Assembly (NCBI GenBank): GCA_000431535.1
Contig: HF991820.1
Coordinates: 1 to 39,658, forward strand
Length of the DNA stretch: 39,658 nt
Reading direction: 5' to 3'
DNA from: Clostridium sp. CAG:678
Lineage (GTDB): Bacteria > Bacillota > Clostridia > Oscillospirales > Acutalibacteraceae
Shown here: one piece after another, positions 4,816 to 33,991 of the stretch
Layout: every line of letters starts with the position of its first letter
How positions within the stretch are numbered: the first letter of the stretch is position 1
The notes under the pieces: generated by a model
Seen by the model: the letters and a program-made list of their open reading frames with translations, nothing else
Databases searched by the model: none
What the model was told of the DNA's origin: nothing
Program-made: the position numbers and the translations under genes

Positions 4816-6006
4816 ATGAAATTTAAAGCTGTTATTTTTGATTTTGACGGAACGATCTGCGCAACCGCGCCCGGTGTTGTAAAAAGCGCGAAATACGCGC
4901 TGGAGGCGTTTGGGTATGCGGTGCCGGAGGATGAAAACGAACTGGAGTTCTTTATAGGCCCTCCGCTGCTTGTTACGTTTCAGGAACGGTTTGGGGCAGA
5001 CCCGCAGACGGCGCTGGAGCTGGTGAAAAAGTACAGGGAAAGATATACCAACCAGGGCGTTTTCGAAAGCGAACTTTACGGCGGGATAGACATTTTGCTT
5101 TCCGCTTTGAAGAAGGACGGTTTAAAGATCGGCATTGCCTCCTCCAAACCGCAGAAATATATTGAAACGCTTTTGGAGCGCTTTAATGTTATGAAGTATT
5201 TTGACTGCGTTTGTGGCGTCAGCTTTACTGCGGACTGTGAATCCAAAGCAAGCATCATTACCCGGTGTATGACCACCATGGGTGTGAACAATGAAAACAC
5301 CTTTATGGTTGGCGACAAAAGATATGATATTGCCGGCGCCAAGGCAAACGAAATGCTTTCCGTTGGCGTGCTTTGGGGTTACGGCACCAAATTTGAGCTG
5401 ATCGAAGCCGGCGCGGATTTCATTGCGGAAAAGATAGAGGATGTGGAATCCATCGCGCTTGGGTATTTTGAGCAGACGGAGGAGAGCACGGGCATCTTTA
5501 ACGGCAGGATCATCACCGTGCACGAAGATACCGTTACGCTGGTGGACGGCACCCACGCCAAGCGGGAGATCGTGGATCACAACGGCGGCGTTGCCGTTAT
5601 CGGCTTAACCGAAGAAAAGGAAGTGCTGCTGGTGCGGCAGTTCCGCGCGCCGTATAAGGAAACGATTTTTGAGATCCCGGCAGGCAAACTGGAAAAGGAC
5701 GAGGATCCGGATGAGGCGGCAAAGCGTGAGTTCAGCGAGGAGTGCGGCTGCACGGCGGGCGAATTCAAATATATCGGCGAACTTTACCCCACGCCCGGTT
5801 ACTGCGGCGAGATCATCCGCCTGTATCTTGCAAGGGATCTGCAGTACGGCGAGCAGCATTTGGATGAGGATGAGCGGCTGGATGTGTATAAAGTGCCGCT
5901 TGAAGAGGCGTTTTGGCGTGTGATGAACGGAGAGTTTAAGGACGCGAAAACGCAGATAGGAATTATGAAAATCAGGGAAATGATAAGAAATGGCAGTTTA
6001 TCTTGA
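4816..6006 (+). CDS. HAD phosphatase - NUDIX (ADP-ribose pyrophosphatase-like) fusion
   Basis: Single 396-residue frame with two hydrolase domains. Residues 1-215 are a HAD phosphatase of the phosphoglycolate phosphatase type: motif I DFDGT (9-13), motif II in IASSKP (107-112), motif III/IV VGDKRYD (165-171). Residues about 225-390 are a NUDIX domain with a complete Nudix box (290-312; GKLEKDE then REFSEECGC) preceded by LVRQFR and FEIPAGK, the pattern of ADP-ribose pyrophosphatases. The NUDIX part would split ADP-ribose to AMP and ribose 5-phosphate; the HAD substrate is unknown. There is no frameshift at the join. ATG 4816 has AGGGG six bases upstream. The last 17 bases overlap the cysteine desulfurase, showing translational coupling. 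Confidence 0.88.
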   Translation: MKFKAVIFDFDGTICATAPGVVKSAKYALEAFGYAVPEDENELEFFIGPPLLVTFQERFGADPQTALELVKKYRERYTNQGVFESELYGGIDILLSALKKDGLKIGIASSKPQKYIETLLERFNVMKYFDCVCGVSFTADCESKASIITRCMTTMGVNNENTFMVGDKRYDIAGAKANEMLSVGVLWGYGTKFELIEAGADFIAEKIEDVESIALGYFEQTEESTGIFNGRIITVHEDTVTLVDGTHAKREIVDHNGGVAVIGLTEEKEVLLVRQFRAPYKETIFEIPAGKLEKDEDPDEAAKREFSEECGCTAGEFKYIGELYPTPGYCGEIIRLYLARDLQYGEQHLDEDERLDVYKVPLEEAFWRVMNGEFKDAKTQIGIMKIREMIRNGSLS

Positions 6007-22158: not shown

Positions 22159-23379
22159 ATGAATTACAAAAACGGACTTGTGCCCGTATCCCTGCTTACG
22201 GGGTATCTGGGCGCCGGCAAGACCACCCTGCTGAATCATATTCTTTCCAATCAGGAGGGCTACCGTGTTGCCGTTATCGTCAATGATATCGGCGAGGTAA
22301 ATATAGATGCTTCTTTGATTCAGAAAGGCGGCGCCGTAACGCAGAAAGATGAAAATCTGGTTCCGCTCTCCAACGGCTGCATCTGCTGCACGCTTAAGGT
22401 GGATCTGATGAAACAGATTATCAGCCTTGCCTCCAGCAAAAAGTTTGATTATATTCTGATCGAGGCGTCCGGCATCTGCGAGCCCGGCCCGATCGCCGGA
22501 TCAATCTGTATGCTGGACGGAACCGACCCGTCTGTTAACCTGCCGGCAGTGGCGTATTTGGACAATATCACCACCGTTGTGGACGCGAAAAGAATGGCGG
22601 ATGAGTTTGGCGCGGGCGATTCCCTGCTGAAAAAGGATATGGACGAAGAGGATATTGAAAACCTGCTTGTTCAGCAGATCGAATACTGCACCACGATCGT
22701 GCTCAATAAGGTGGATGAGGTATCGCCGAAAGCGAAAGAAAAGGTGCTTGCCGTGATCAAAGCGCTCCAGCCGCAGGCAAAGATCATTGAAACCACTTAC
22801 GGCAATGTGGATGTTGGCGAGATTCTTTCCACGAACCGCTTTGATTATGAAAAAATCCTGGAAAGCGCAGGCTGGATTCAGGCAATGCGCGGCGAGGGCG
22901 AAAATTCCGAAAGCGAACAGGAAGCGCATCACGCGCACGAAGATCATGAACATGAGCATGAGGCGCACGGCCACCACCATCACCATCACCACGGCGAGGG
23001 CGAGGCGGAGGAATACGGCATCGGCACGTTTGTATATCAGAATGTAAAGCCGTTTTCCAAGCAGAAGTTTGAGGAATTTGTTTTTGCCAAATGGCCGAAA
23101 GAAGTGATCCGCGCAAAAGGGCTGTTTTGGATCAAGGAAGATCCGGACACGGCGTATATTTTTGAGCAGAGCGGCAGGCAGAAGACTGCCACGGACGACG
23201 GCAAATGGATCGCCTGCTTCCCGGAGCGGGAAAGAAAACAGATCCTTCAGATGAATCCGGATATCGCCGCGGCGTGGGATCCCACTTATGGGGACAGGAT
23301 CAATAAAATCGTTTTCATCGGCAGGGATATGGATAAAGCGGCCATTATCAAGGCGCTGGATCATTGCCTTGCGCAGTAA
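22159..23379 (+). CDS. COG0523 (CobW/ZNG1-type) metallochaperone GTPase with His-rich loop
   Basis: G3E-family GTPase that probably delivers a metal, most often zinc, to client proteins. In the 406-residue product: Walker A GAGKTT (18-23), the metal-binding CICC motif (74-77) in SNGCICCTLK, EASGICEPGP (102-111), and NKVD (183-186) for guanine specificity. Between the GTPase and the CobW C-terminal domain lies a His-rich segment (257-278) with 14 histidines, including seven in a row, likely a metal buffer. Nothing in the neighbourhood points to cobalamin synthesis. AAGGAG is eight bases before the ATG. It is a single-gene unit followed by a hairpin repeat. Confidence 0.9.
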   Translation: MNYKNGLVPVSLLTGYLGAGKTTLLNHILSNQEGYRVAVIVNDIGEVNIDASLIQKGGAVTQKDENLVPLSNGCICCTLKVDLMKQIISLASSKKFDYILIEASGICEPGPIAGSICMLDGTDPSVNLPAVAYLDNITTVVDAKRMADEFGAGDSLLKKDMDEEDIENLLVQQIEYCTTIVLNKVDEVSPKAKEKVLAVIKALQPQAKIIETTYGNVDVGEILSTNRFDYEKILESAGWIQAMRGEGENSESEQEAHHAHEDHEHEHEAHGHHHHHHHGEGEAEEYGIGTFVYQNVKPFSKQKFEEFVFAKWPKEVIRAKGLFWIKEDPDTAYIFEQSGRQKTATDDGKWIACFPERERKQILQMNPDIAAAWDPTYGDRINKIVFIGRDMDKAAIIKALDHCLAQ

Positions 23380-23637: not shown

Positions 23638-24423
23638 ATGAAAAAACTGAGTTTTACAAAAGATCAGTGGCTTTCCCTCTTTTCGCTTGCAATCGTTATC
23701 CTCTGCTACGCGGGAGAGAAGGCAATGAAACGGCTTGTGCCGTGGAGTGAAACTTCCGCTCTGATCCAGGCGTTTGTGTTTACCGTTGCCGTTGCGGCGG
23801 TCTATCTGATCCTTTCCAAGGCAAAGGACGCGTATTTCGGCATGATCGCCGGTATCTTCGCGTTTAAAATTTTACCGCCGGATATGGAAATGCTGCGCGC
23901 TTATAATATGGACGCGTCCTGCGTGTATTTCATTGTGCGCAAGATGGCGCTTGTGCTGTTTCTTTATACGATCTATCGGCTCTATCTGCGCTCCAAAAAA
24001 GGGCAGGCGGATCCCATCCGCGCCCTGCCGGTTGCCGCACTGCTGCTTGTTGTTCCGTTTTTAACGGGTATGTCCAATGATTTTGAGCAGTATGCGTATA
24101 TCAAAACAGGCAGTATGATGCTGCCGTATGCGCTGGACGCCGGCTTTTATATTGCCGCCATGTGTGTGCTTGGCGTGGTGTGCGTTTTGTTCCGCGGCAG
24201 AAACGCCGCGCTCGTCTGCGATTTTTCCATGATCGGTTTTGTTGTGGGCGGCGCCAGAAAACTCTGCTCCGCTTTGATCATCCTGAATGCCAATCTGCAT
24301 CTCAGCAAATCCTATATCTGCTGGATCGCGATCTATGCCGTGCTGATCGCCGCGTTTGCCGTGCTCAGAAAAAAGACGGCAGGCTCCGCGCTTATCTTTT
24401 CAGGCGCGGCAAGAAAATCATGA
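23638..24423 (+). CDS. Integral membrane protein of unknown function
   Basis: I do not recognise this family. The 261-residue protein has about eight hydrophobic segments (roughly 12-30, 40-60, 66-80, 100-118, 130-148, 165-190, 200-220, 228-245) joined by short basic loops, for example RLYLRSKKGQ, and no soluble domain. ATG 23638 is chosen because the preceding AAGTGAT can pair with the 3' end of 16S rRNA; two earlier starts (GTG 23629, ATG 23632) are possible. The next gene overlaps by 4 bp (ATGA), so the two were made as a pair; that partner is now interrupted by a stop codon. Confidence 0.7.
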   Translation: MKKLSFTKDQWLSLFSLAIVILCYAGEKAMKRLVPWSETSALIQAFVFTVAVAAVYLILSKAKDAYFGMIAGIFAFKILPPDMEMLRAYNMDASCVYFIVRKMALVLFLYTIYRLYLRSKKGQADPIRALPVAALLLVVPFLTGMSNDFEQYAYIKTGSMMLPYALDAGFYIAAMCVLGVVCVLFRGRNAALVCDFSMIGFVVGGARKLCSALIILNANLHLSKSYICWIAIYAVLIAAFAVLRKKTAGSALIFSGAARKS

Positions 24424-25103
24424 ATAAATCAGATTTCAATAAAATAGAGCAATATATGCTTTCCTGCATGGGGGACAGCGCACATGACAGCCAGCATATT
24501 TACCGGGTGCTTTTTATTGCGCTGGATATTGCAGAGCACGAAAAAAATGTTGATAAAGATATATTGATAGCCGCGTGCCTTTTGCACGATATCGGCAGAA
24601 AAGAACAGTTTGAAGATCCCTCGCTTTGCCATGCGCAGGTTGGCGCGGAAAAGGCAAGAACTTTTCTGCTGGAAAACGGCTTTGATTCTGAATTTGCCGA
24701 TAGAGCGGCAGCCTGCGTAAGAAAGCATCGTTACCGTTCTGCTTCCCCGCCGGAGAAAATTGAGGAAAAAATCTTGTTTGATTCCGATTAACTGGAGGCG
24801 GCGGGCCTTATGGGGATCGCGCGCTCTCTTTTGTATGAGGGAAAAGCAGGCACGCCGATCTATTCGCTCGGCAGTGATTTTGAAGTGCTGGACGGCACCG
24901 GAAATGAACCGCCGTCTTTTTTCAGAGAATATAATTTTAAGTTAAAAAAGGTTTATTCCGGGTTTTATACAAGCAGGGCAAAGAAGATCGCAAAAGCGCG
25001 CGAATCTGCCGCTGCCGCGTTTTATGAGGAACTGCTTTTTGAATCCCGCGCCGCTTATTCCGGCAAAAGGCTCCTTTCTGAATATTTGGAGCCCTGTTTT
25101 TAA
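24420..25103 (+). pseudogene. HD-domain phosphohydrolase gene interrupted by an in-frame TAA
   Basis: From ATG 24420 the frame encodes 123 residues with HD-superfamily features: H in SAHDSQHIYRV, the LLHDIGR pair, and KHR. It reaches DSD and then meets TAA (24789-24791). The same frame goes on without a shift: LEAAG, then MGIARSLLYEGKAG and about 90 more residues to 25103. HD proteins of this type usually read D-x-D-K-L-D/E-A-x-G here, so a Lys codon AAA has become TAA by one change. TAA ends several intact genes in this window, so it is not a sense codon. GGAGG (24794-24798) lies before ATG 24810, so a separate downstream fragment could be translated by reinitiation. Read-through product would be 227 residues. 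A true mutation, a two-part protein or a base-call error are all possible. Confidence 0.8.
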
Positions 25104-25175: not shown

Positions 25176-25910
25176 TTATTTTTGCGTTGTTCCATACAGC
25201 TTTGCAAGCACGGAATTGCGAAATGTTTTATCCTGTGTAACTTCTTTGATCACGTGCAGGAACGGCGGTAACTCAAAATTTTCCGTTTCGCTTTTCAGTT
25301 CGATCTCCAGCAGCGCCCGATCCGCCCAAAAGGGGAAGAGATCCAGCTCAAAGCACTTGCCGTTATAAAGCAGGAGCCAGCGGCGCTTGGAAAGCACTTT
25401 TTCTCCCTGAATGTGGTTCAGATATTCCGCCTCGGTGATGCGGCTTTCTTTTTCTATTCTTTTCATTTCGGTCAGTTTTATTTTTTCCGTTTTAATATAG
25501 ATAAAATCGCCGTCTTTGCCGCGTTTTCTTACCCTGAACCGTTCGCCGTTTCGGTTTATATACGCCTGCGCAATATCCGCATAATCGCAAAGGTCATGGT
25601 TTTGCAATTCGCTTTCGCCGGGCTTTTCAATCAGAAATTTCCGCTCAATCTCCAGCGGTTCGGGAATACCAAGGAAAAAATCCATCTCCTCAAACAGCGC
25701 TTTTTCATTTGCCGCCAAGCGCAGATGCTCGTTTCCAAGCCATTTTTTTATAACGGTTTTCTCTGTGCCGCTGTTGAGAAACACAGCGGAATAGGCATAT
25801 TTTTCCGCATTGCTTTCGCAGGGCACGTCAAAAAACAACTCTGCTTTTCCGGCGTATCTTTTTCTTACGGCATCCGTGTTTTCAAAGCCGATAACGGCAA
25901 TCTTTTCCAT
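25176..25910 (-). CDS. CYTH-domain (triphosphate tunnel) protein with unique N-terminal region
   Basis: 244 residues. From about 85 on it is a CYTH domain: the EIERK signature (87-91; E-x-E-x-K), RFRVRKRG, KTEKIK, and later basic/acidic strand pairs, as in triphosphate-binding tunnel enzymes (thiamine triphosphatase, tripolyphosphatase, CyaB). Such enzymes hydrolyse or cyclise triphosphate compounds with Mg or Mn. Residues 1-84 (MEKIAVIGFENTD onward) match nothing I know and contain no P-loop. The ATG directly follows the stop of the ATP-grasp gene, so this is the third gene of a tight operon. The substrate may be a product or by-product of the ATP-grasp ligases; this is inference. Confidence 0.82.
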   Translation of the reverse strand: MEKIAVIGFENTDAVRKRYAGKAELFFDVPCESNAEKYAYSAVFLNSGTEKTVIKKWLGNEHLRLAANEKALFEEMDFFLGIPEPLEIERKFLIEKPGESELQNHDLCDYADIAQAYINRNGERFRVRKRGKDGDFIYIKTEKIKLTEMKRIEKESRITEAEYLNHIQGEKVLSKRRWLLLYNGKCFELDLFPFWADRALLEIELKSETENFELPPFLHVIKEVTQDKTFRNSVLAKLYGTTQK

Positions 25911-26645
25911 TTATTTCAACTCTTTTTTAATGTATTCGCAGTAAAGGCGCAAAATATCAATATCGGTTTTATCGTATACCATTCTTGCGCCAACGGCGTC
26001 TTCTATCTCATTAAAAACGGCTTTGCCGCCGTCAAAAACAAAATCTATCCCTATATAATCATATTTTATGCGCGATGCAATCTTATAAATGAGCGCGCGT
26101 TCGCTCTTGCTTAAGCGGTATATTTCGGCACTGCCGCCAAGGCAGTAATTGGATCGAAAATCCGTTTCGCTTTTTCTGAGCACGGCGCAGATGATCTTGC
26201 CGCCGATCAGCCACACACGCAGGTCTCTGCCAAGGTCTGACGCCGGTTTTTGATACACAAATCCTTTTTTGAACGCCACTTTGCCGCTTTTTATCAGGCG
26301 CACGTCTCTGCCGCCCTTGCCGTTTGCCGGTTTTTCTACCAGCGGCGGTTCTGTTTGATTGATCGGCATTATCTCTATGCCGTTTTCACGCATAAATTCA
26401 TAGCACTTTTGCTTATCGTTCGCAAGGCGGGTCAGCGCCGCCGGGTTAAAAACGCGTATGCCGCGCCGCTCAAAGTTTTCGGCTATATCCGCGTTGTTCG
26501 TTCTGTTGATCACAAAATCTGCCGGCATGCCGAACTCTGTTTCGTTTTCCAAAACCAGTTTTACGCCAAGATATTTTTTAAACCGTTCAACCGAAAAGGC
26601 GTTGCGCTGTGCCTCTTCTTTGCTGTATATCAGTATTCCGCTCAA
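25911..26645 (-). CDS. RimK-like ATP-grasp protein (second of pair)
   Basis: 244 residues. ATP-grasp features: VEKPANGKGGRDVRL nucleotide loop (about 103-117), DLRVWLIGGKIICAVLR (about 141-157) as in RimK, YIGIDFVFDGG, and the metal-binding end NEIEDAVGARM, where the usual E-x-N of RimK is E-I-E-D. RimK-type enzymes join an amino acid or peptide to a carboxylate through an acyl phosphate. The start is TTG, overlapping the TGA of the upstream ATP-grasp gene by 4 bp; the nearest GAGGAG is 14 bases away, so translation is probably coupled. It is clearly different from its partner and not a recent duplicate. Substrates are unknown. Confidence 0.8.
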   Translation of the reverse strand: MSGILIYSKEEAQRNAFSVERFKKYLGVKLVLENETEFGMPADFVINRTNNADIAENFERRGIRVFNPAALTRLANDKQKCYEFMRENGIEIMPINQTEPPLVEKPANGKGGRDVRLIKSGKVAFKKGFVYQKPASDLGRDLRVWLIGGKIICAVLRKSETDFRSNYCLGGSAEIYRLSKSERALIYKIASRIKYDYIGIDFVFDGGKAVFNEIEDAVGARMVYDKTDIDILRLYCEYIKKELK

Positions 26646-27457
26646 AGTCTGTTTCTTATCTCCTCAAAGATCAGCGGGGCAATATCCGTGCCCGTGCAGT
26701 TCATAATGTTTATGATATGGGCGTTGCTGTTTACCTCGCACACGCTGCCGTCGGAAAGGATATCCACGCCGCCGAACGTAAGCCCCAGCGCGCCGCAAGC
26801 GGCAAGCGCGCTTTTCACTTCAGAATCCGTGGGCGTGTAAGGCTCCATGTGCCCGCCGTTGGTTACGTTCGCCCGAAAATCCTGTTTGTTTTCACGGCGC
26901 ACCGCCGCGGCGATCTTTCCGCCAACTACTTCTATTCTGATGTCATGCCCGGCGGAATCCGCTATAAATTCCTGCAGTATAAACGGCTTTTCCGTACTAT
27001 GGCGCAGGACATCTTCCTTGCGTTCGCAAAGAAACACCTGCTCGCCGAACGAGCCGAAACATTCCTTAAAAACAAGCGGCAGGCCAAGGATTTTTATTGC
27101 GCCTTCAACAAACTGTGCAAAATCCGCCTTAAAATAAGTTTTGGGCGCGATCAGTGTTTTCGGCTGCTTTACGATTCCGTTAAGCGCTATATAGGTTTTT
27201 GCCTTGTCGTCGCAAAGCGCAATGCCTTTGGCGCTGTTAAAAACCGGCAATCCGCTTTTTTCAAGCCGCCGGGCAAGGTTGGTGTCCTTATCCCAAAACA
27301 GCACAAAATCCGCGTCCGGCGTTTCCAGCGCCAGTTCCAGATTTGTCTTTAACAGCAGTTCCACGCCCTGCTTTTTTGCGCTTTCCAGCAAATGGCGGTG
27401 CAGCGTATTAAATTTTTGTGTGTTTAAAAAGTGATTGACCGCAAGTATGCCTTTCAT
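26642..27457 (-). CDS. RimK-like ATP-grasp ligase (first of pair)
   Basis: 271 residues, RimK-type ATP-grasp fold: N-terminal alpha/beta domain with DADFVLFWDKD and the preATP-grasp Lys segment, LPLVFKECFGSFGEQV nucleotide loop, HDIRIEVVGGKIAAAVRR, the RAN motif in QDFRANVTNGG, FGGVDIL and the metal-binding EVNSNAHI. All expected ATP and Mg ligands are visible, so it should be an active carboxylate-amine ligase. ATG 27457 has AAAGG seven bases upstream; earlier in-frame ATGs lack a site. It is the promoter-proximal gene of the CYTH/ATP-grasp operon and diverges from the AICAR formyltransferase gene. Confidence 0.82.
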   Translation of the reverse strand: MKGILAVNHFLNTQKFNTLHRHLLESAKKQGVELLLKTNLELALETPDADFVLFWDKDTNLARRLEKSGLPVFNSAKGIALCDDKAKTYIALNGIVKQPKTLIAPKTYFKADFAQFVEGAIKILGLPLVFKECFGSFGEQVFLCERKEDVLRHSTEKPFILQEFIADSAGHDIRIEVVGGKIAAAVRRENKQDFRANVTNGGHMEPYTPTDSEVKSALAACGALGLTFGGVDILSDGSVCEVNSNAHIINIMNCTGTDIAPLIFEEIRNRL

Positions 27458-27591: not shown

Positions 27592-28767
27592 ATGACGGAA
27601 TATACCCTTAAATACGGCTGTAACCCAAATCAGAATCCCGCCCGTATCCATATGGACGGCAAAGAACTGCCTTTTGAGATCTTAAACGGCAGCGCGGGAT
27701 ATATCAATCTTTTGGATGCTTTCAACTCCTGGCAGCTTGTTAAGGAACTGAAAGAGGCAACCGGCCTGCCAAGCGCGGCGTCCTTTAAGCACGTTTCGCC
27801 CGCCGGCGCCGCCGTTGCGCAGCCGCTGGATGAAACGGACAGAAAAGTCTGCTTTGTGCCGGAAGGGCTGGAACTTTCTCCTATTGCCCAGGCGTATGTA
27901 AGAGCAAGAGGGTGCGACAGGGTTTCTTCCTTCGGCGATTTCGCGGCGCTTTCCGATGAATGCGACGCGTCTGTTGCGCAGTTCCTTGTAAAAGAAGTTT
28001 CAGACGGCATTATCGCTCCGTCTTATTCCGACGAGGCGCTGGAGATCTTAAAAAAGAAAAGGCGCGGCAATTATCTGATCATAAAAATGGATCCGAATTA
28101 TGTGCCGGAAGAGATGGAAACCAAGCAAGTGTTTGGCATTAAGTTTGAGCAAAAGAGAAATAATGCCAAGATCACAATGAGCCTGTTTGACGATATGCCC
28201 ACCAAAGTTAAGGAGATCCCTCAGATCGCAAAGATAGATCTGCTCATTTCCATGATCACGCTGAAATACACGCAGTCCAATTCCGTATGCTACGCCATGG
28301 GCGGGCAGACGATCGGCGTTGGCGCAGGGCAGCAGTCCCGTATTGCCTGCACACGCCTTGCAGGCACAAAGGCGGATAATTTCTGGCTTCGCAGGCACGA
28401 TAAAGTAACTTCCCTGCCGTTTATTGAGGGCATCAGGAAGTGCGAGGCGGATAACGCCATAGATCTTTATATCAGCGATGAATATGAGGAACTTTATAAA
28501 AACGACCTTTGGAAAAAGTATTTCACCGAAAAGCCGGAGCCGTTCACCGCAGAGGAAAAGGCGCAGTGGCATAAGCGGATGACGAATGTTGCCCTCGGTT
28601 CGGACGCGTTTTTCCCGTTTGAAGATAATATTGAGCGCGCGGCAAGATCCGGCGTTAAATATGTTGCCCAGCCGGGCGGTTCAGTAAGGGACCAGGCGGT
28701 TATTGATTGCTGCGATGCATTCGGCATGGCAATGGCGATGACGGGAATCAGACTTTTCCACCATTGA
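27592..28767 (+). CDS. AICAR formyltransferase, stand-alone (no IMP cyclohydrolase domain)
   Basis: Formylates AICAR to FAICAR with 10-formyl-tetrahydrofolate, the penultimate step of purine synthesis. The 391-residue protein begins MTEYTLKYGCNPNQNPAR and has ASFKHVSPAGAAVA (about 62-75) with the catalytic Lys-His, and KYTQSNSVCYAMGGQTIGVGAGQQSR, both AICARFT signatures. It lacks the N-terminal MGS-like cyclohydrolase domain of standard PurH, so IMP cyclohydrolase must come from another gene (purO or a separate PurH). Stand-alone forms are common in Clostridia. GCGGAGG lies eight bases before the ATG. No other pur gene and no purine riboswitch is in the window. Confidence 0.93.
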   Translation: MTEYTLKYGCNPNQNPARIHMDGKELPFEILNGSAGYINLLDAFNSWQLVKELKEATGLPSAASFKHVSPAGAAVAQPLDETDRKVCFVPEGLELSPIAQAYVRARGCDRVSSFGDFAALSDECDASVAQFLVKEVSDGIIAPSYSDEALEILKKKRRGNYLIIKMDPNYVPEEMETKQVFGIKFEQKRNNAKITMSLFDDMPTKVKEIPQIAKIDLLISMITLKYTQSNSVCYAMGGQTIGVGAGQQSRIACTRLAGTKADNFWLRRHDKVTSLPFIEGIRKCEADNAIDLYISDEYEELYKNDLWKKYFTEKPEPFTAEEKAQWHKRMTNVALGSDAFFPFEDNIERAARSGVKYVAQPGGSVRDQAVIDCCDAFGMAMAMTGIRLFHH

Positions 28768-30700: not shown

Positions 30701-30724
30701 CTTAAAACCGAAGGGATGAATCTT

Positions 30725-33700
30725 ATGTTTTTTAAAAAAGGAATCAGATCGGCAGCGGCGTACATACTTGCCGTGATCATGGCATTCTCTTTCCCGATCA
30801 GTGCGGCGGCGCTGACAACAAGCACTTCGCCTTATACAAATAAAACGTATACGCACAGTTCGGCGTTTGACGGCTATGACAGGCATGACGGCATTGATGT
30901 TTCCGCGCATAACGGAGATCAGATCAACTGGCAGAGCGTGAAAGCGGACGGTATTGAATACGCCGTTATTCGCGCCGGCTTTACCGGATATACGAAGTCA
31001 AGGCATTCGATCAATGCGGACACGCAGGCGGTAACCAATATCAAAAATGCGCAGGCAGCAGGCCTGCCGGTAGGCGTATACTGGTTTTCGCAGGCGCTGA
31101 ACGAGAGCGAGGCAAGAGCAGAGGCGCAGAAGACGCTTGAAATCATCAGCGGCTATGATCTGCAGCTGCCCGTATTCTTTGACTATGAATTTTACGGCGT
31201 TGCCGAAGGCAGGCTGGATTCCGCCTGGAGAGAGGGCACGATCACAAAAAGCCAGATGACTGCCAATGCCCGCGCTTTCTGCGAAGTGATCGAGTCGGCA
31301 GGCTATGAGACGGGCATCTATGCCAACAAGTCTTTCCTCACGAGCCAGCTGGATGCGGCAAGTCTTGCCAACGATTACAGCATTTGGCTTGCGCATTTCA
31401 CGACCCAAACGGATTATACCGGCGATTACTATATGTGGCAGTATACCGAAGAGGGCAAAGTTGACGGTATCAGCGGCAATGTGGACTGCGATTTCATGTA
31501 TCTGCCAAACGGCACGGAAATCGGCGGCGACCGCAAAGTAACCGGCTTTAACGTATACGGCAGGGGCGACGGCGGCACGGATCTTTATTTGGAATGGAAT
31601 GAAGTCGGCGGCGCGGATAAATATGAAGTATATATCGTTTCCGCAAACAGCGAAACACTGAAAGGAACGGTTACGGAAAATCGGTTTACCTTTACGGATC
31701 TTTCCCCTGCATGGGAATATGACGTCAGAGTAAAAGCGTACAGCGGTGATGAACTGATTGCGCAGAATCATACTTACAGAGTTTGCGCGGCTCCGTCCCC
31801 GGTTCAGAATCTTTCCGTCAGCCTAAACGGCAACGCCATCACGGCAAGCTGGGATGTGCAGGCGTCGCACGGTTACTATATTCAGTGGTCAACGGATCCC
31901 ACATTTGCCAAGAATGTAAACGGCTCCTTTATTACGGGTTCCGGTTCAACAAAGTATACGATCAATGTGGATAACGCGCAGGATTACTATGTTCGCGTAA
32001 GAGCATGGAAATGGTATGAGGGCTACAGGCTTTACAGCGATTTCTCCGCCCCGGTAAAACCTGCGGTTCCGCTTTCTGCCCCAACCGGCTTTAATGTTTA
32101 CGGCAGAGGAGACGGCGGCACGGATCTTTACCTTGACTGGAACGATGTTGCCGGCGCGGACGGCTACAGAGTATATATCAACAACGGCAAGCAGGATCTT
32201 CTTCAGGGCGAAACAACGCAAAGCAGATATACATTTACGGAACTGGTTCCTGCTTGGGAATATGATGTAAAAGTAGTTGCTTACAATGATGTCAGCACTT
32301 CTGAGGCGATGTTCAGAATCTGCGCCGCGCCGTCACCCGTAAACGGGCTTCAGGCAGAGGCGGATGAAGATTCCATCACCGCAAGCTGGGATGTGCAGGC
32401 GTCGCACGGCTATTACATTCAGTGGTCTACGGATCCCAACTTCGTTCAGAATGTGAACGGCGCGTTCATAACCGGTTCCGGTTCCACAAAGTATACGATT
32501 AATGTGGATAACGCACAGGATTACTATGTTCGCGTAAGAGCGTGGAAATGGTATCAGAATACAAGACTTTACAGCGATTTTTCGGCTCCGGTAAAACCGG
32601 ACGGCGCGCTTTCGGCTCCAACCGGCTTTAATGTTTACGGCAGAGGAGACGGCGGCACGGATCTTTATCTGGAGTGGAATGAAGTCAGCGGCGCGGAGAA
32701 ATATGAAGTATATATCGTTTCCGCAAACAGCGAAACGCTGAAAGGAACGGTTGAAGACAGCCGGTTTGTATTTACGGATCTTTCCCCGGCATGGGAATAT
32801 GATGTTAAAGTAGTTGCCTACGGCGGCGGGAAAACTTCTGAGGCAATGTTCAGAGTCTGCGCCGCGCCGTCACCTGTAAACGGACTTCAGGCAGAGGCGG
32901 ATGAGGATTCCGTCACCGCAACCTGGGATGTGCAGGCGTCGCACGGTTACTATATTCAGTGGTCAACGGATCCCACATTTGCCAAGAATGTAGACGGCTC
33001 TTTTATTACAGGTTCCGGCTCCACAAAGTATACGATCAATGTGGATCATGCGCAGGATTACTATGTTCGCGTAAGAGCGTGGAAATGGTATGAGGGCTAC
33101 AGGCTTTACAGCGATTTTTCAGCGCCTGTAAAGCCGGACGGCGTTCTTTCCGCTCCCACAGGTTTTAATGTATACGGCAGAGGAGACGGCGGTACGGATC
33201 TTTATCTGGATTGGGATGATGTTGCCGGTGCCGAAGGCTACAGAGTATACATCCATAACGGCAGTGAAGACCTTTTGCAGGGAGACATTGCTGAGAGCAA
33301 ATTTACCTTTACGGAACTGACCCCGGCATGGGAATATGATGTAAAGGTAGTGGCATACAGCGGAGACAAAACTTCTGAGGCAACATACAGAGTATGCGCC
33401 GCCCCGGAGCAAGTTGAAAACGTTTACGCCGTTTTCAATACGGAGCAGATCGTTGGCCTTTGGGATCCGGTAACGAGCCACGGATATGTATTTCAGTGGT
33501 CTAAGGATAAGGATTTCTCCGATATAGAAGGCAGCGTAAGTTTGACGGGCACGGATAATGTTTATTATGAACTGAGTGTATCCGTTCCAACCGATTATTA
33601 TATAAGAGTCAGGGCATGGAAAAATTATAACGGATCCTATATTTACGGCGATTTTTCTGAGCCGCTTGAGATAAAGCCCATGCCCGTTGAAGACGCTGCT

Positions 33701-33991
33701 CTTGCACAGGAGCAGATCAATGCGTATATAGACGCTGTGGATGGATTTGTTTTGGATGACTCCCTTGCAGATGACGGCGTGTTGTATATTGCGATGCCAA
33801 CGAATATTTTTACGCATCAGGAAGTATTGACCATCATGATGGATGTGATGGCTGAGGCGCTCAGAGCCATGGTGGATGAAGAAACTGCGTGGGAGGGCGA
33901 TATCCCGCTCTATGCAGATATCGTTGTGCTGGACGGCGTTACTTATGTTGCCCTGCTTACCAGCGCGGAACTTGCTGCCGCAGTCAGCTAA
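30725..33991 (+). CDS. Secreted GH25 muramidase with eight Fn3-like modules
   Basis: 1088 residues. Signal peptide about 1-28 (FFKKGIRSAAAYILAVIMAF, then AAA). GH25 domain about 50-262 with GIDVSAHNG (Asp58) and FFDYEF (Asp153, Glu155). From residue 274 four long repeats of about 180 residues, each with an A part (GFNVYGRGDGGTDLYL) and a B part (SWDVQASHGYYIQWSTDP), each probably an Fn3-like sandwich, so eight modules; the last B part is diverged. Residues about 985-1088 form an acidic C-terminal region I do not recognise. No LPxTG or transmembrane anchor is present, so it is probably released or held by the modules. ATG 30725 is chosen because AAGGG is nine bases upstream; ATG 30716 would abut it. 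Likely acts in wall turnover or on foreign peptidoglycan. Confidence 0.93.
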   Translation: MFFKKGIRSAAAYILAVIMAFSFPISAAALTTSTSPYTNKTYTHSSAFDGYDRHDGIDVSAHNGDQINWQSVKADGIEYAVIRAGFTGYTKSRHSINADTQAVTNIKNAQAAGLPVGVYWFSQALNESEARAEAQKTLEIISGYDLQLPVFFDYEFYGVAEGRLDSAWREGTITKSQMTANARAFCEVIESAGYETGIYANKSFLTSQLDAASLANDYSIWLAHFTTQTDYTGDYYMWQYTEEGKVDGISGNVDCDFMYLPNGTEIGGDRKVTGFNVYGRGDGGTDLYLEWNEVGGADKYEVYIVSANSETLKGTVTENRFTFTDLSPAWEYDVRVKAYSGDELIAQNHTYRVCAAPSPVQNLSVSLNGNAITASWDVQASHGYYIQWSTDPTFAKNVNGSFITGSGSTKYTINVDNAQDYYVRVRAWKWYEGYRLYSDFSAPVKPAVPLSAPTGFNVYGRGDGGTDLYLDWNDVAGADGYRVYINNGKQDLLQGETTQSRYTFTELVPAWEYDVKVVAYNDVSTSEAMFRICAAPSPVNGLQAEADEDSITASWDVQASHGYYIQWSTDPNFVQNVNGAFITGSGSTKYTINVDNAQDYYVRVRAWKWYQNTRLYSDFSAPVKPDGALSAPTGFNVYGRGDGGTDLYLEWNEVSGAEKYEVYIVSANSETLKGTVEDSRFVFTDLSPAWEYDVKVVAYGGGKTSEAMFRVCAAPSPVNGLQAEADEDSVTATWDVQASHGYYIQWSTDPTFAKNVDGSFITGSGSTKYTINVDHAQDYYVRVRAWKWYEGYRLYSDFSAPVKPDGVLSAPTGFNVYGRGDGGTDLYLDWDDVAGAEGYRVYIHNGSEDLLQGDIAESKFTFTELTPAWEYDVKVVAYSGDKTSEATYRVCAAPEQVENVYAVFNTEQIVGLWDPVTSHGYVFQWSKDKDFSDIEGSVSLTGTDNVYYELSVSVPTDYYIRVRAWKNYNGSYIYGDFSEPLEIKPMPVEDAALAQEQINAYIDAVDGFVLDDSLADDGVLYIAMPTNIFTHQEVLTIMMDVMAEALRAMVDEETAWEGDIPLYADIVVLDGVTYVALLTSAELAAAVS
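31544..33678 (+). repeat. Four tandem ~540-bp coding repeats
   Basis: Copies begin at 31544, 32087, 32624 and 33161, each at the codons for GFNVYGRGDGG; periods are 543, 537 and 537 bp. Long segments are close to identical in DNA as well as protein, for example around SHGYYIQWSTDP and STKYTINVD in copies 1-3, so they were copied or converted recently. Copy 4 keeps the A part but its B part is diverged. Copies 1 and 3 share the EVYIVSANSETLKGT variant while 2 and 4 share the GYRVYI variant, an alternating pattern that suggests duplication of a two-copy block. Confidence 0.92.

What the first reader, a model, noticed from the sequence alone, without database searches (positions are those of the whole stretch)
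25176..27457. CYTH protein fused to an unknown N-terminal region, in one operon with two different RimK-like ATP-grasp proteins
Three genes with junctions of 4 bp overlap and 0 bp form one minus-strand unit closed by a terminator. ATP-grasp enzymes of the RimK type join carboxylates to amines; two unlike copies suggest two successive ligations. CYTH domains bind and hydrolyse triphosphate-containing compounds. The EIERK signature in the CYTH protein and most ATP-grasp motifs are intact, so the unit looks functional. I know no characterised pathway with this set. It could make a small peptide-like or polyamine-like metabolite, or modify a protein tail. The first 84 residues of the CYTH protein match no domain I recognise.
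Basis: partly seen in the sequence, partly recalled or inferred. Interest (0 to 1): 0.72.

Follow-up and report, generated by a model that had tools for sequence, protein, structure and literature searches.

The report
ATP-grasp pair plus shrunken CYTH protein
Two neighbouring ligase-like genes travel together in some Clostridia as a tightly linked pair, and in this lineage a third gene, for a predicted tripolyphosphate-cutting enzyme whose front part is the worn-down half of a lost ATP/GTP-binding domain, has been added behind them.

Summary
The three genes, their 4-base and 0-base junctions and the closing hairpin are real. As a set they are not a conserved pathway. The conserved unit is the two ATP-grasp genes: A lies directly upstream of B in 94 of 94 loci found through B (92 distinct B). 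A always keeps the usual E-x-N metal motif; B always has E-x-E-D. In 36 other same-genus genomes the CYTH gene lies behind the pair in 4, elsewhere in 18, and is not found in 14; the arrangement is confined to one clade. Its "unknown" first 84 residues are the shortened C-terminal half of a P-loop NTPase (AAA_28), intact in longer homologues, the architecture of Drosophila TTD14; Walker A is gone, and the shrinkage probably happened at least twice. Motif rules make the CYTH part a tripolyphosphatase, not a cyclase or thiamine triphosphatase. In another clostridial family the gene behind B is also a triphosphate-tunnel protein, a VTC domain: a functional link, or chance. Substrates are unknown; no structure could be predicted.

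The parts
26642..27457 (-). Gene A: RimK-family ATP-grasp protein, 271 aa, canonical metal motif C-E-V-N-S-N-A-H
   Evidence: Pfam RimK 107 bits; NCBIfam TIGR00768 154 bits, over its cut-off 143.4; E-x-N in 94 of 94 loci
25911..26645 (-). Gene B: divergent RimK-like ATP-grasp protein, 244 aa, metal motif F-N-E-I-E-D (E-x-E)
   Evidence: Pfam RimK 53.7 bits; TIGR00768 81.2 bits, below cut-off 143.4; E-x-E in 94 of 94 loci
25176..25910 (-). Gene C: reduced P-loop NTPase half plus CYTH/TTM domain, 244 aa
25659..25910 (-). C residues 1-84: shortened C-terminal half of an AAA_28-type P-loop NTPase, without Walker A
   Evidence: hhalign of this region alone against the N-terminal regions of the five long homologues of its own clade and of all seven: probability 94.9 and 96.7%, E 1.1e-8 and 5.3e-10; against the two long ones of the other clade only 3.8%. 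Three long homologues scanned match AAA_28 at 60-91 bits
25179..25658 (-). C residues 85-244: CYTH/triphosphate tunnel domain with ExExK, RxR and ExE motifs
   Evidence: motif rules from PMC8233210
25126..25158 (.). terminator-like hairpin closing the unit (shared with the convergent gene)

Best explanation
A and B are one unit: a translationally coupled pair of RimK-type ATP-grasp proteins, seen only in Clostridia in the samples searched, that together make one carboxylate-amine ligase system. A has a standard ATP/Mg site and is probably the catalytic ligase. B keeps the fold, both ATP-site lysines and two metal ligands (site assignments recalled), but has Glu in place of the usual Asn ligand, and works with A either as a partner subunit or as a second, divergent ligase. 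The substrate is unknown. C is a later, lineage-specific addition. It is a triphosphate tunnel enzyme that most likely hydrolyses inorganic tripolyphosphate. It descends from a P-loop NTPase-CYTH fusion of the TTD14 kind, lost the Walker A half of the NTPase, and keeps the other half as a short cap under weaker but real selection. Shown: adjacency of A to B, the motifs, homology of the N-terminal region, one clade for the CYTH arrangement. Inferred: catalysis, heteromer, tripolyphosphatase activity, role of the cap.
For: A directly upstream of B in 94 of 94 loci (92 distinct B). Exact 4-base overlap in 51 of 75 measured pairs. In the class sample the strong B hits (139 bits or more) are in 14 of 291 genomes including the window's, each with a second RimK-like match next to it; in the phylum sample of 299 no genome apart from the window's own exceeds 52.3 bits. 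E-x-N against E-x-E without exception; the solved ArgX and RimK shown in the alignment have ELN and EVN there. Three scanned long homologues of C carry AAA_28 plus CYTH. Full-length fusions occur in 7 of 291 class genomes. CYTH tree: two deep clades split at 100/98, each holding long and stub forms. A+B tree: all 13 feoB/CYTH rows form one clade, 100/98. No HF motif, R instead of W/Y at the ThTPase position, E202-x-E204 present. dN/dS against the nearest relative: stub 0.31, CYTH 0.14.
Against: No structure, no activity and no substrate were obtained. All 94 loci were found by searching for B, so an A without B would not have been seen. B keeps most ATP-grasp residues and may be fully active. 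C is the next gene after B in six of the nine CYTH loci (0 bp in the window), and the tree asks for at least two changes of the feoB gene between them while C stayed, which hints that the neighbourhood matters. A second triphosphate-tunnel gene behind the pair in another family also speaks against C being a mere neighbour. The stub profile does not match the two long forms of the other clade (3.8%), and only one pair was unsaturated enough for both dN/dS values.
Confidence: 0.6

Rival explanations
1. A and B are two independently active ligases that add two building blocks in succession to a small molecule or protein tail.
For: Both have invariant lysines, arginines and acidic residues along the ATP-grasp fold. 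A and B differ in their N-terminal substrate half. No B without A was seen.
Against: B always has Glu where the solved relatives shown have the Asn metal ligand, which suggests altered rather than standard catalysis. No other gene was seen constantly beside the pair outside the genus.
Confidence: 0.3
2. A, B and C form one working pathway in this clade: the ligase pair handles or makes a phosphate-rich compound, and C trims a triphosphate from it or removes tripolyphosphate.
For: 0-bp junction. C stays behind B although feoB between them comes and goes at least twice on the tree (losses are the simpler reading). In family f75 a VTC triphosphate-tunnel gene lies right behind B in 3 genomes. By Pfam search C is the only VTC/CYTH gene found in G000 and G029, and the VTC gene behind B the only one in G182, G292 and G310.
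Against: C is missing behind A-B-feoB in L080, L082, L084, L088 and L090. 11 of 36 same-genus genomes have B without a C homologue found, and 2 have C without B. Of the five genomes checked that carry C behind the pair, G009 has a second CYTH gene, G021 a VTC gene elsewhere and G032 a broken CYTH fragment. VTC in L210 is followed by DUF4956, not by a shared gene. No PPK1 or VTC gene found in the window's genome.
Confidence: 0.2
3. Residues 1-84 of C are a new small domain unrelated to NTPases, fused to CYTH independently.
For: No Pfam hit for this part. hhalign E-values are for single comparisons, one of the three comparisons fails (3.8%), and the first 35-40 residues align loosely.
Against: In the sequence search itself the match to the long homologues runs back from the CYTH domain to residue 41 (L007) or 50-53 (L006, L008, L009, L012, L013, L025), into the end of their NTPase domain. 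hhalign gives 94.9-96.7% for C's clade and 97.5-98.6% for the second stub clade.
Confidence: 0.07

Closest known systems
RimK / LysX / ArgX alpha-L-glutamate ligases (ATP-grasp, TIGR00768, PF08443)
   Same: A passes TIGR00768; both genes pass Pfam RimK; nearest solved chains are RimK, ArgX/LysX and alpha-L-glutamate ligases (the enzyme name ArgX for 3vpb is recalled).
   Different: Found as a tandem pair; B fails TIGR00768 and has E-x-E instead of E-x-N; no LysW, S6 or cofactor partner noticed next to them.
TTD14 (Drosophila P-loop NTPase + CYTH, binds GTP; PMC4624897)
   Same: Long bacterial homologues of C have the same order, P-loop NTPase then CYTH, with a G-x-P-x-x-G-K-[ST] Walker A.
   Different: C has lost Walker A and most of the NTPase; TTD14 itself was not aligned here.
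NeuTTM / NE1496, specific tripolyphosphatase of Nitrosomonas europaea
   Same: NE1496 is the nearest solved chain for the CYTH part (E 6.9e-11 by profile); TTM motifs kept. That NE1496 is NeuTTM is recalled.
   Different: C has an extra N-terminal cap; activity not tested.
VTC polyphosphate polymerases (PF09359)
   Same: Triphosphate tunnel fold, as stated for Vtc4p in PMC4641920; lies behind the same pair in family f75.
   Different: Different family; C keeps glutamates typical of the hydrolases (E87, E89, E202, E204); no alignment to VTC was made.

Membership tests
RimK family alpha-L-glutamate ligase (TIGR00768), gene A | whole-protein score over the curated cut-off 143.4 bits | tested here: met
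   A: 154 bits
RimK family alpha-L-glutamate ligase (TIGR00768), gene B | whole-protein score over the curated cut-off 143.4 bits | tested here: not met
   B: 81.2 bits
RimK-like ATP-grasp domain (PF08443), A and B | score over the gathering cut-off 21 bits | tested here: met
   A 107, B 53.7 bits
ATP-grasp ligases, gene A | E-x-N metal motif near the C-terminus | tested here: met
   E-x-N in 94 of 94 loci, one of them E-A-N. That this motif binds metal is recalled
ATP-grasp ligases, gene B | E-x-N metal motif near the C-terminus | tested here: not met
   E-x-E in 94 of 94 loci
LysX, MptN, CofF, GAK, S6 ligase and other equivalogs listed by NCBIfam | equivalog score over cut-off | tested here: not met
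   the equivalog scores listed for A and B are all well below their cut-offs
CYTH (PF01928) | score over the gathering cut-off 23.2 bits | tested here: not met
   C 17.9 bits; homologues L007, L009, L012 and L015 score 27-33 bits, L010 17.2
CYTH / triphosphate tunnel metalloenzyme | ExExK signature | tested here: met
   E87-I-E-R-K91, invariant in 9 of 9 aligned proteins
class IV adenylyl cyclase (CyaB) | HFxxxxExExK and Ala in the second place of ExE on strand 8 (PMC8233210, section 10) | tested here: not met
   G81-I82 at the HF place; E202-I-E204 kept
thiamine triphosphatase / plant TTM1-2 | W/YxRxR (PMC8233210, section 10) | tested here: not met
   R124-F-R126-V-R128
inorganic tripolyphosphatase | hydrolysis of tripolyphosphate | not testable with these tools
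   needs protein; motif rules point to it
TTD14-type NTPase-CYTH protein | P-loop with Walker A and Walker B in front of CYTH | tested here: not met
   lost in C; AAA_28 present in L007, L009, L012 and Walker A in the four rows of A4
known anti-phage defence protein (PADLOC) | match to a PADLOC model | tested here: not met
   0 hits for A, B, C at E up to 1

The most novel reading that the evidence does not exclude
The A-B pair is a two-part ATP-grasp enzyme of a new kind, one standard subunit and one with an E-x-E metal site, and it is tied to tripolyphosphate or polyphosphate chemistry. Twice, in different clostridial families, a triphosphate-tunnel enzyme (a CYTH tripolyphosphatase here, a VTC polyphosphate polymerase in family f75) became the gene directly behind the pair; in the three f75 genomes and in two of the five CYTH-carrying genomes checked, including the window's, it is the only such gene that Pfam searches found.
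Probability: 0.12. Interest if true: 0.7.

Novelty: new variant of a known kind. Interest (0 to 1): 0.45.

Why it matters
The pair is a closely linked, unnamed enzyme module with a built-in asymmetry that a bench test can settle. If B's E-x-E site works, it widens the known chemistry of ATP-grasp enzymes; if it does not, B is a clear case of a partner subunit. The CYTH protein shows a P-loop NTPase being worn away to an 84-residue cap, probably at least twice inside one genus, with intact, half and absent forms side by side, so the role of the NTPase in TTD14-type proteins can be approached by comparing them. Read as one pathway, the unit would mislead annotation; the conserved piece is two genes, not three.

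Tried and rejected
Rejected: (1) a conserved three-gene pathway, because the CYTH gene follows the pair in one clade only and B and C do not co-occur beyond chance (Fisher p 0.36). (2) A role tied to purine synthesis from the AICARFT-like neighbour: its cluster has 58 genes over the window and 80 loci, but none was seen in L142-L157 or L204-L216, so shared gene order within the genus explains it. (3) Adenylyl cyclase or thiamine triphosphatase for C, by motif rules. (4) A defence system: no PADLOC hit. (5) A link to PPK1-made polyphosphate in this organism: no PPK1 or VTC gene found in its genome. (6) My first alignment placed the first strand of C on the P-loop strand; profile comparison places it on the Walker B strand. 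I prefer the latter, but this detail is not settled.

Led nowhere: structure prediction of C (alignment A3) was never accepted because the queue was full, so no fold search was possible. Literature searches for the pair or for CYTH with ATP-grasp gave nothing on point: searches returned no paper; I saw only the listings (20 of 58, 12 of 14 and 3 of 3 papers). Iyer and Aravind 2002 is not held. RNase H fused to A (L204, L205) and a phosphofructokinase-type gene behind B (L142, L144, L145, L146, L148; Pfam run on L145 only) were noted without an explanation.

Papers, what I saw: PMC4624897 passages and section 7; PMC8233210 passages and section 10; PMC3440374 and PMC4641920 passages only; all others as search listings with abstract starts. 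Recalled, not from a call: that NE1496 is NeuTTM and 3vpb is ArgX, which ATP-grasp residues bind metal and ATP, the FeoB, MurC and FliB names given to neighbours from their sequence, and the HD and lysozyme names in the noticed list.

Dropped rows and limits: the named-genome scan confirmed 134 stretches and kept 80. The CYTH tree left out L085 and L086 (same loci as L003 and L005), L027 (fragment with a stop) and L089 (cut at a contig end). The A+B tree used 37 of 61 genus loci in which both genes were called (feoB/CYTH ones and odd-numbered others; L090 lacked A in that call). One search measured the junction in 75 loci, because gene calling missed A in L090, L091, L105, L144, L155 and both genes in L138; one search recovered these by profile. 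The search of 114 loci for tunnel-fold genes used profiles built here from the genus's CYTH domains and three VTC proteins, so distant members could be missed.
Full report
What is there. Three minus-strand genes, A (26642-27457), B (25911-26645) and C (25176-25910); A and B overlap by 4 bases, B and C abut. A hairpin with a T-run closes the unit. A and B are RimK-like ATP-grasp proteins and C has a CYTH domain.

Where it comes from. The best named relatives are MAGs of Clostridia, several titled as gut or rumen samples. A genome of the window's genus (G005) has a contig of the same length (73285) as a contig of Eubacterium coprostanoligenes ATCC 51222 that carries the pair, so the window belongs to that group (inference).

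The pair is the conserved unit. B is found in 31 of 36 other same-genus genomes, in the window's own, and weakly in one of 23 genomes of other families of the order. Over 80 named-genome loci (kept of 134 confirmed), 13 class-level loci and the window, A lies directly upstream of B in 94 of 94 (92 distinct B sequences). These loci were all found through B, so an A without B would not show. The overlap is exactly 4 bases in 51 of 75 measured pairs. In a class sample, 14 of 291 genomes including the window's own have a strong B hit (139 bits or more), each with a second RimK-like match next to it. In a phylum sample of 299, apart from the window's own genome, matches reach at most 52.3 bits. In two other clostridial orders the pair is patchy: 3 of 28 and 3 of 30 genomes.

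A and B differ in a fixed way. The metal motif near the C-terminus is E-x-N in A (CEVNSNAH in most; one has E-A-N) and E-x-E-D in B (FNE[ILM]ED in most; L150, L206 and L207 have LNEIED, L153/L216 LSEIED), in 94 of 94 loci for each. The solved relatives shown in the alignment have ELN or EVN at that place. A passes the NCBI RimK-family cut-off and B does not. B therefore has an altered but strictly kept site. Whether it is active is open.

The third gene is a late addition. The CYTH gene is the next gene after B in the window and in L078, L079, L081, L083 and L087, and follows with a FeoB-like gene between in L085, L086 and L089: 8 of 80 named loci. FeoB without CYTH follows B in L080, L082, L084, L088 and L090. 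In a tree of 37 A+B rows all 13 feoB/CYTH rows form one clade (100/98), with the four feoB-only rows as a subclade. The simplest history is one arrival of feoB and CYTH behind the pair, more than one later loss of feoB, and one loss of CYTH; repeated insertion of feoB is not excluded. Among 36 other same-genus genomes C lies behind the pair in 4, elsewhere in 18, and is not found in 14; 20 have both B and C, 11 only B, 2 only C, 3 neither (Fisher p 0.36). Where it lies elsewhere, C homologues mostly sit between MurC-like and FliB-like genes or among other genes.

What the N-terminal region is. Longer homologues in the same genus (354-437 aa where complete) carry a P-loop NTPase before the CYTH domain; three were scanned and match Pfam AAA_28 at 60-91 bits. 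The match of C to these proteins runs back to residue 41 or 50-53, into the end of their NTPase. Profile comparison of the N-terminal regions alone gives 94.9 and 96.7% for C's clade (against five long forms of its clade and against all seven) but only 3.8% against the two long forms of the other clade; the second stub clade gives 97.5-98.6% in all three comparisons. The hits align to the half that starts at the Walker B strand. Walker A and the lid are gone. The CYTH-domain tree (29 rows) has two deep clades (100/98), each with long and stub forms; a third form has no N-terminal part. Full-length fusions occur in 7 of 291 class genomes, all in other families, so the fusion is probably the older state, and the shrinkage then happened at least twice. 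Against the nearest relative dN/dS is 0.31 for the stub and 0.14 for the CYTH part (synonymous change is saturated in the CYTH part of all other pairs), so the stub is kept by selection, more loosely. The order P-loop NTPase then CYTH is that of Drosophila TTD14, which binds GTP and loses this with a Walker A mutation (PMC4624897, passages and section 7).

What the CYTH part does. The rules of PMC8233210 (section 10) exclude a class IV adenylyl cyclase (no HF, second Glu of E202-x-E204 kept) and a thiamine triphosphatase (R at the W/Y place). Tripolyphosphatase remains the best prediction. The nearest solved chain is NE1496; NeuTTM of that organism is a specific tripolyphosphatase (PMC3440374, passages; the identity of the two is recalled).

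A second triphosphate-tunnel neighbour. In three genomes of family f75 (G182, G292, G310) the gene right behind B is a VTC domain (140-157 bits), followed in L210 by a DUF4956 gene. Vtc4p has the triphosphate tunnel fold (PMC4641920, passages). A search of 114 loci (1.47 Mb, with repeats) with profiles of this CYTH group and of these VTC proteins found them only behind B, in these two lineages. By Pfam search the VTC gene is the only VTC or CYTH gene found in G182, G292 and G310, and C the only one in G000 and G029. Against this, G009 has a second CYTH gene, G021 a VTC gene elsewhere, and G032 a broken CYTH fragment (there that search missed C); and 10 of the 13 class-level loci have no such gene behind B. 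With zero to three such genes per genome the coincidence is unlikely for any one position, but it was noticed after the fact, the events are only two, and other neighbours (FeoB, RNase H, phosphofructokinase) recur as well. I give the link a low probability.

Verdict. I found no description of the module in the open-licence library with the terms (listings only). No structure model was obtained.

Noticed in passing
window 24420-25103 (+): A convergent gene that looks like an HD-domain protein (name recalled) is interrupted by one in-frame stop codon at 24789-24791; pseudogene, sequencing error or strain difference.
   Followed up: partly
L204:5978-7765 (-), L205:6607-8295 (-): In two genomes of family f31 gene A is fused behind an RNase H-like domain (Pfam RNase_H 31 bits in L204; L205 not scanned) and a small unnamed domain; in L206 (34 bits) and L207 the RNase H-like protein is a separate gene upstream of the pair.
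   Followed up: partly
L210:6545-7988 (+), L213:4532-5275 (-), L214:7056-7808 (+): VTC polyphosphate-polymerase domain gene directly behind the ATP-grasp pair in family f75, followed in L210 by a DUF4956 gene (44.8 bits).
   Followed up: partly
window 27592-28767 (+): Divergent AICARFT-like gene of 391 aa that matches only positions 77-311 of the AICARFT/IMPCHase model; its cluster has 58 genes over the window and 80 named loci.
   Followed up: partly
window 4816-6006 (+): One protein with a HAD hydrolase domain followed by a NUDIX domain.
   Followed up: no
window 22159-23379 (+): CobW-type GTPase (CobW and CobW_C) with a long His-rich stretch between the domains.
   Followed up: no
window 30716-33991 (+): Secreted-looking 1091-aa protein with a lysozyme-like (GH25-looking) front and several similar repeats (domain names recalled).
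   Followed up: no
L027 (G032:C10:23951-24343): A broken CYTH fragment with an in-frame stop in a genome that has an intact C elsewhere.
   Followed up: no
L208:4007-5230 (-): A protein with a Card1-like endonuclease domain (34 bits) lies right behind B in the one genome of family f76 seen.
   Followed up: no
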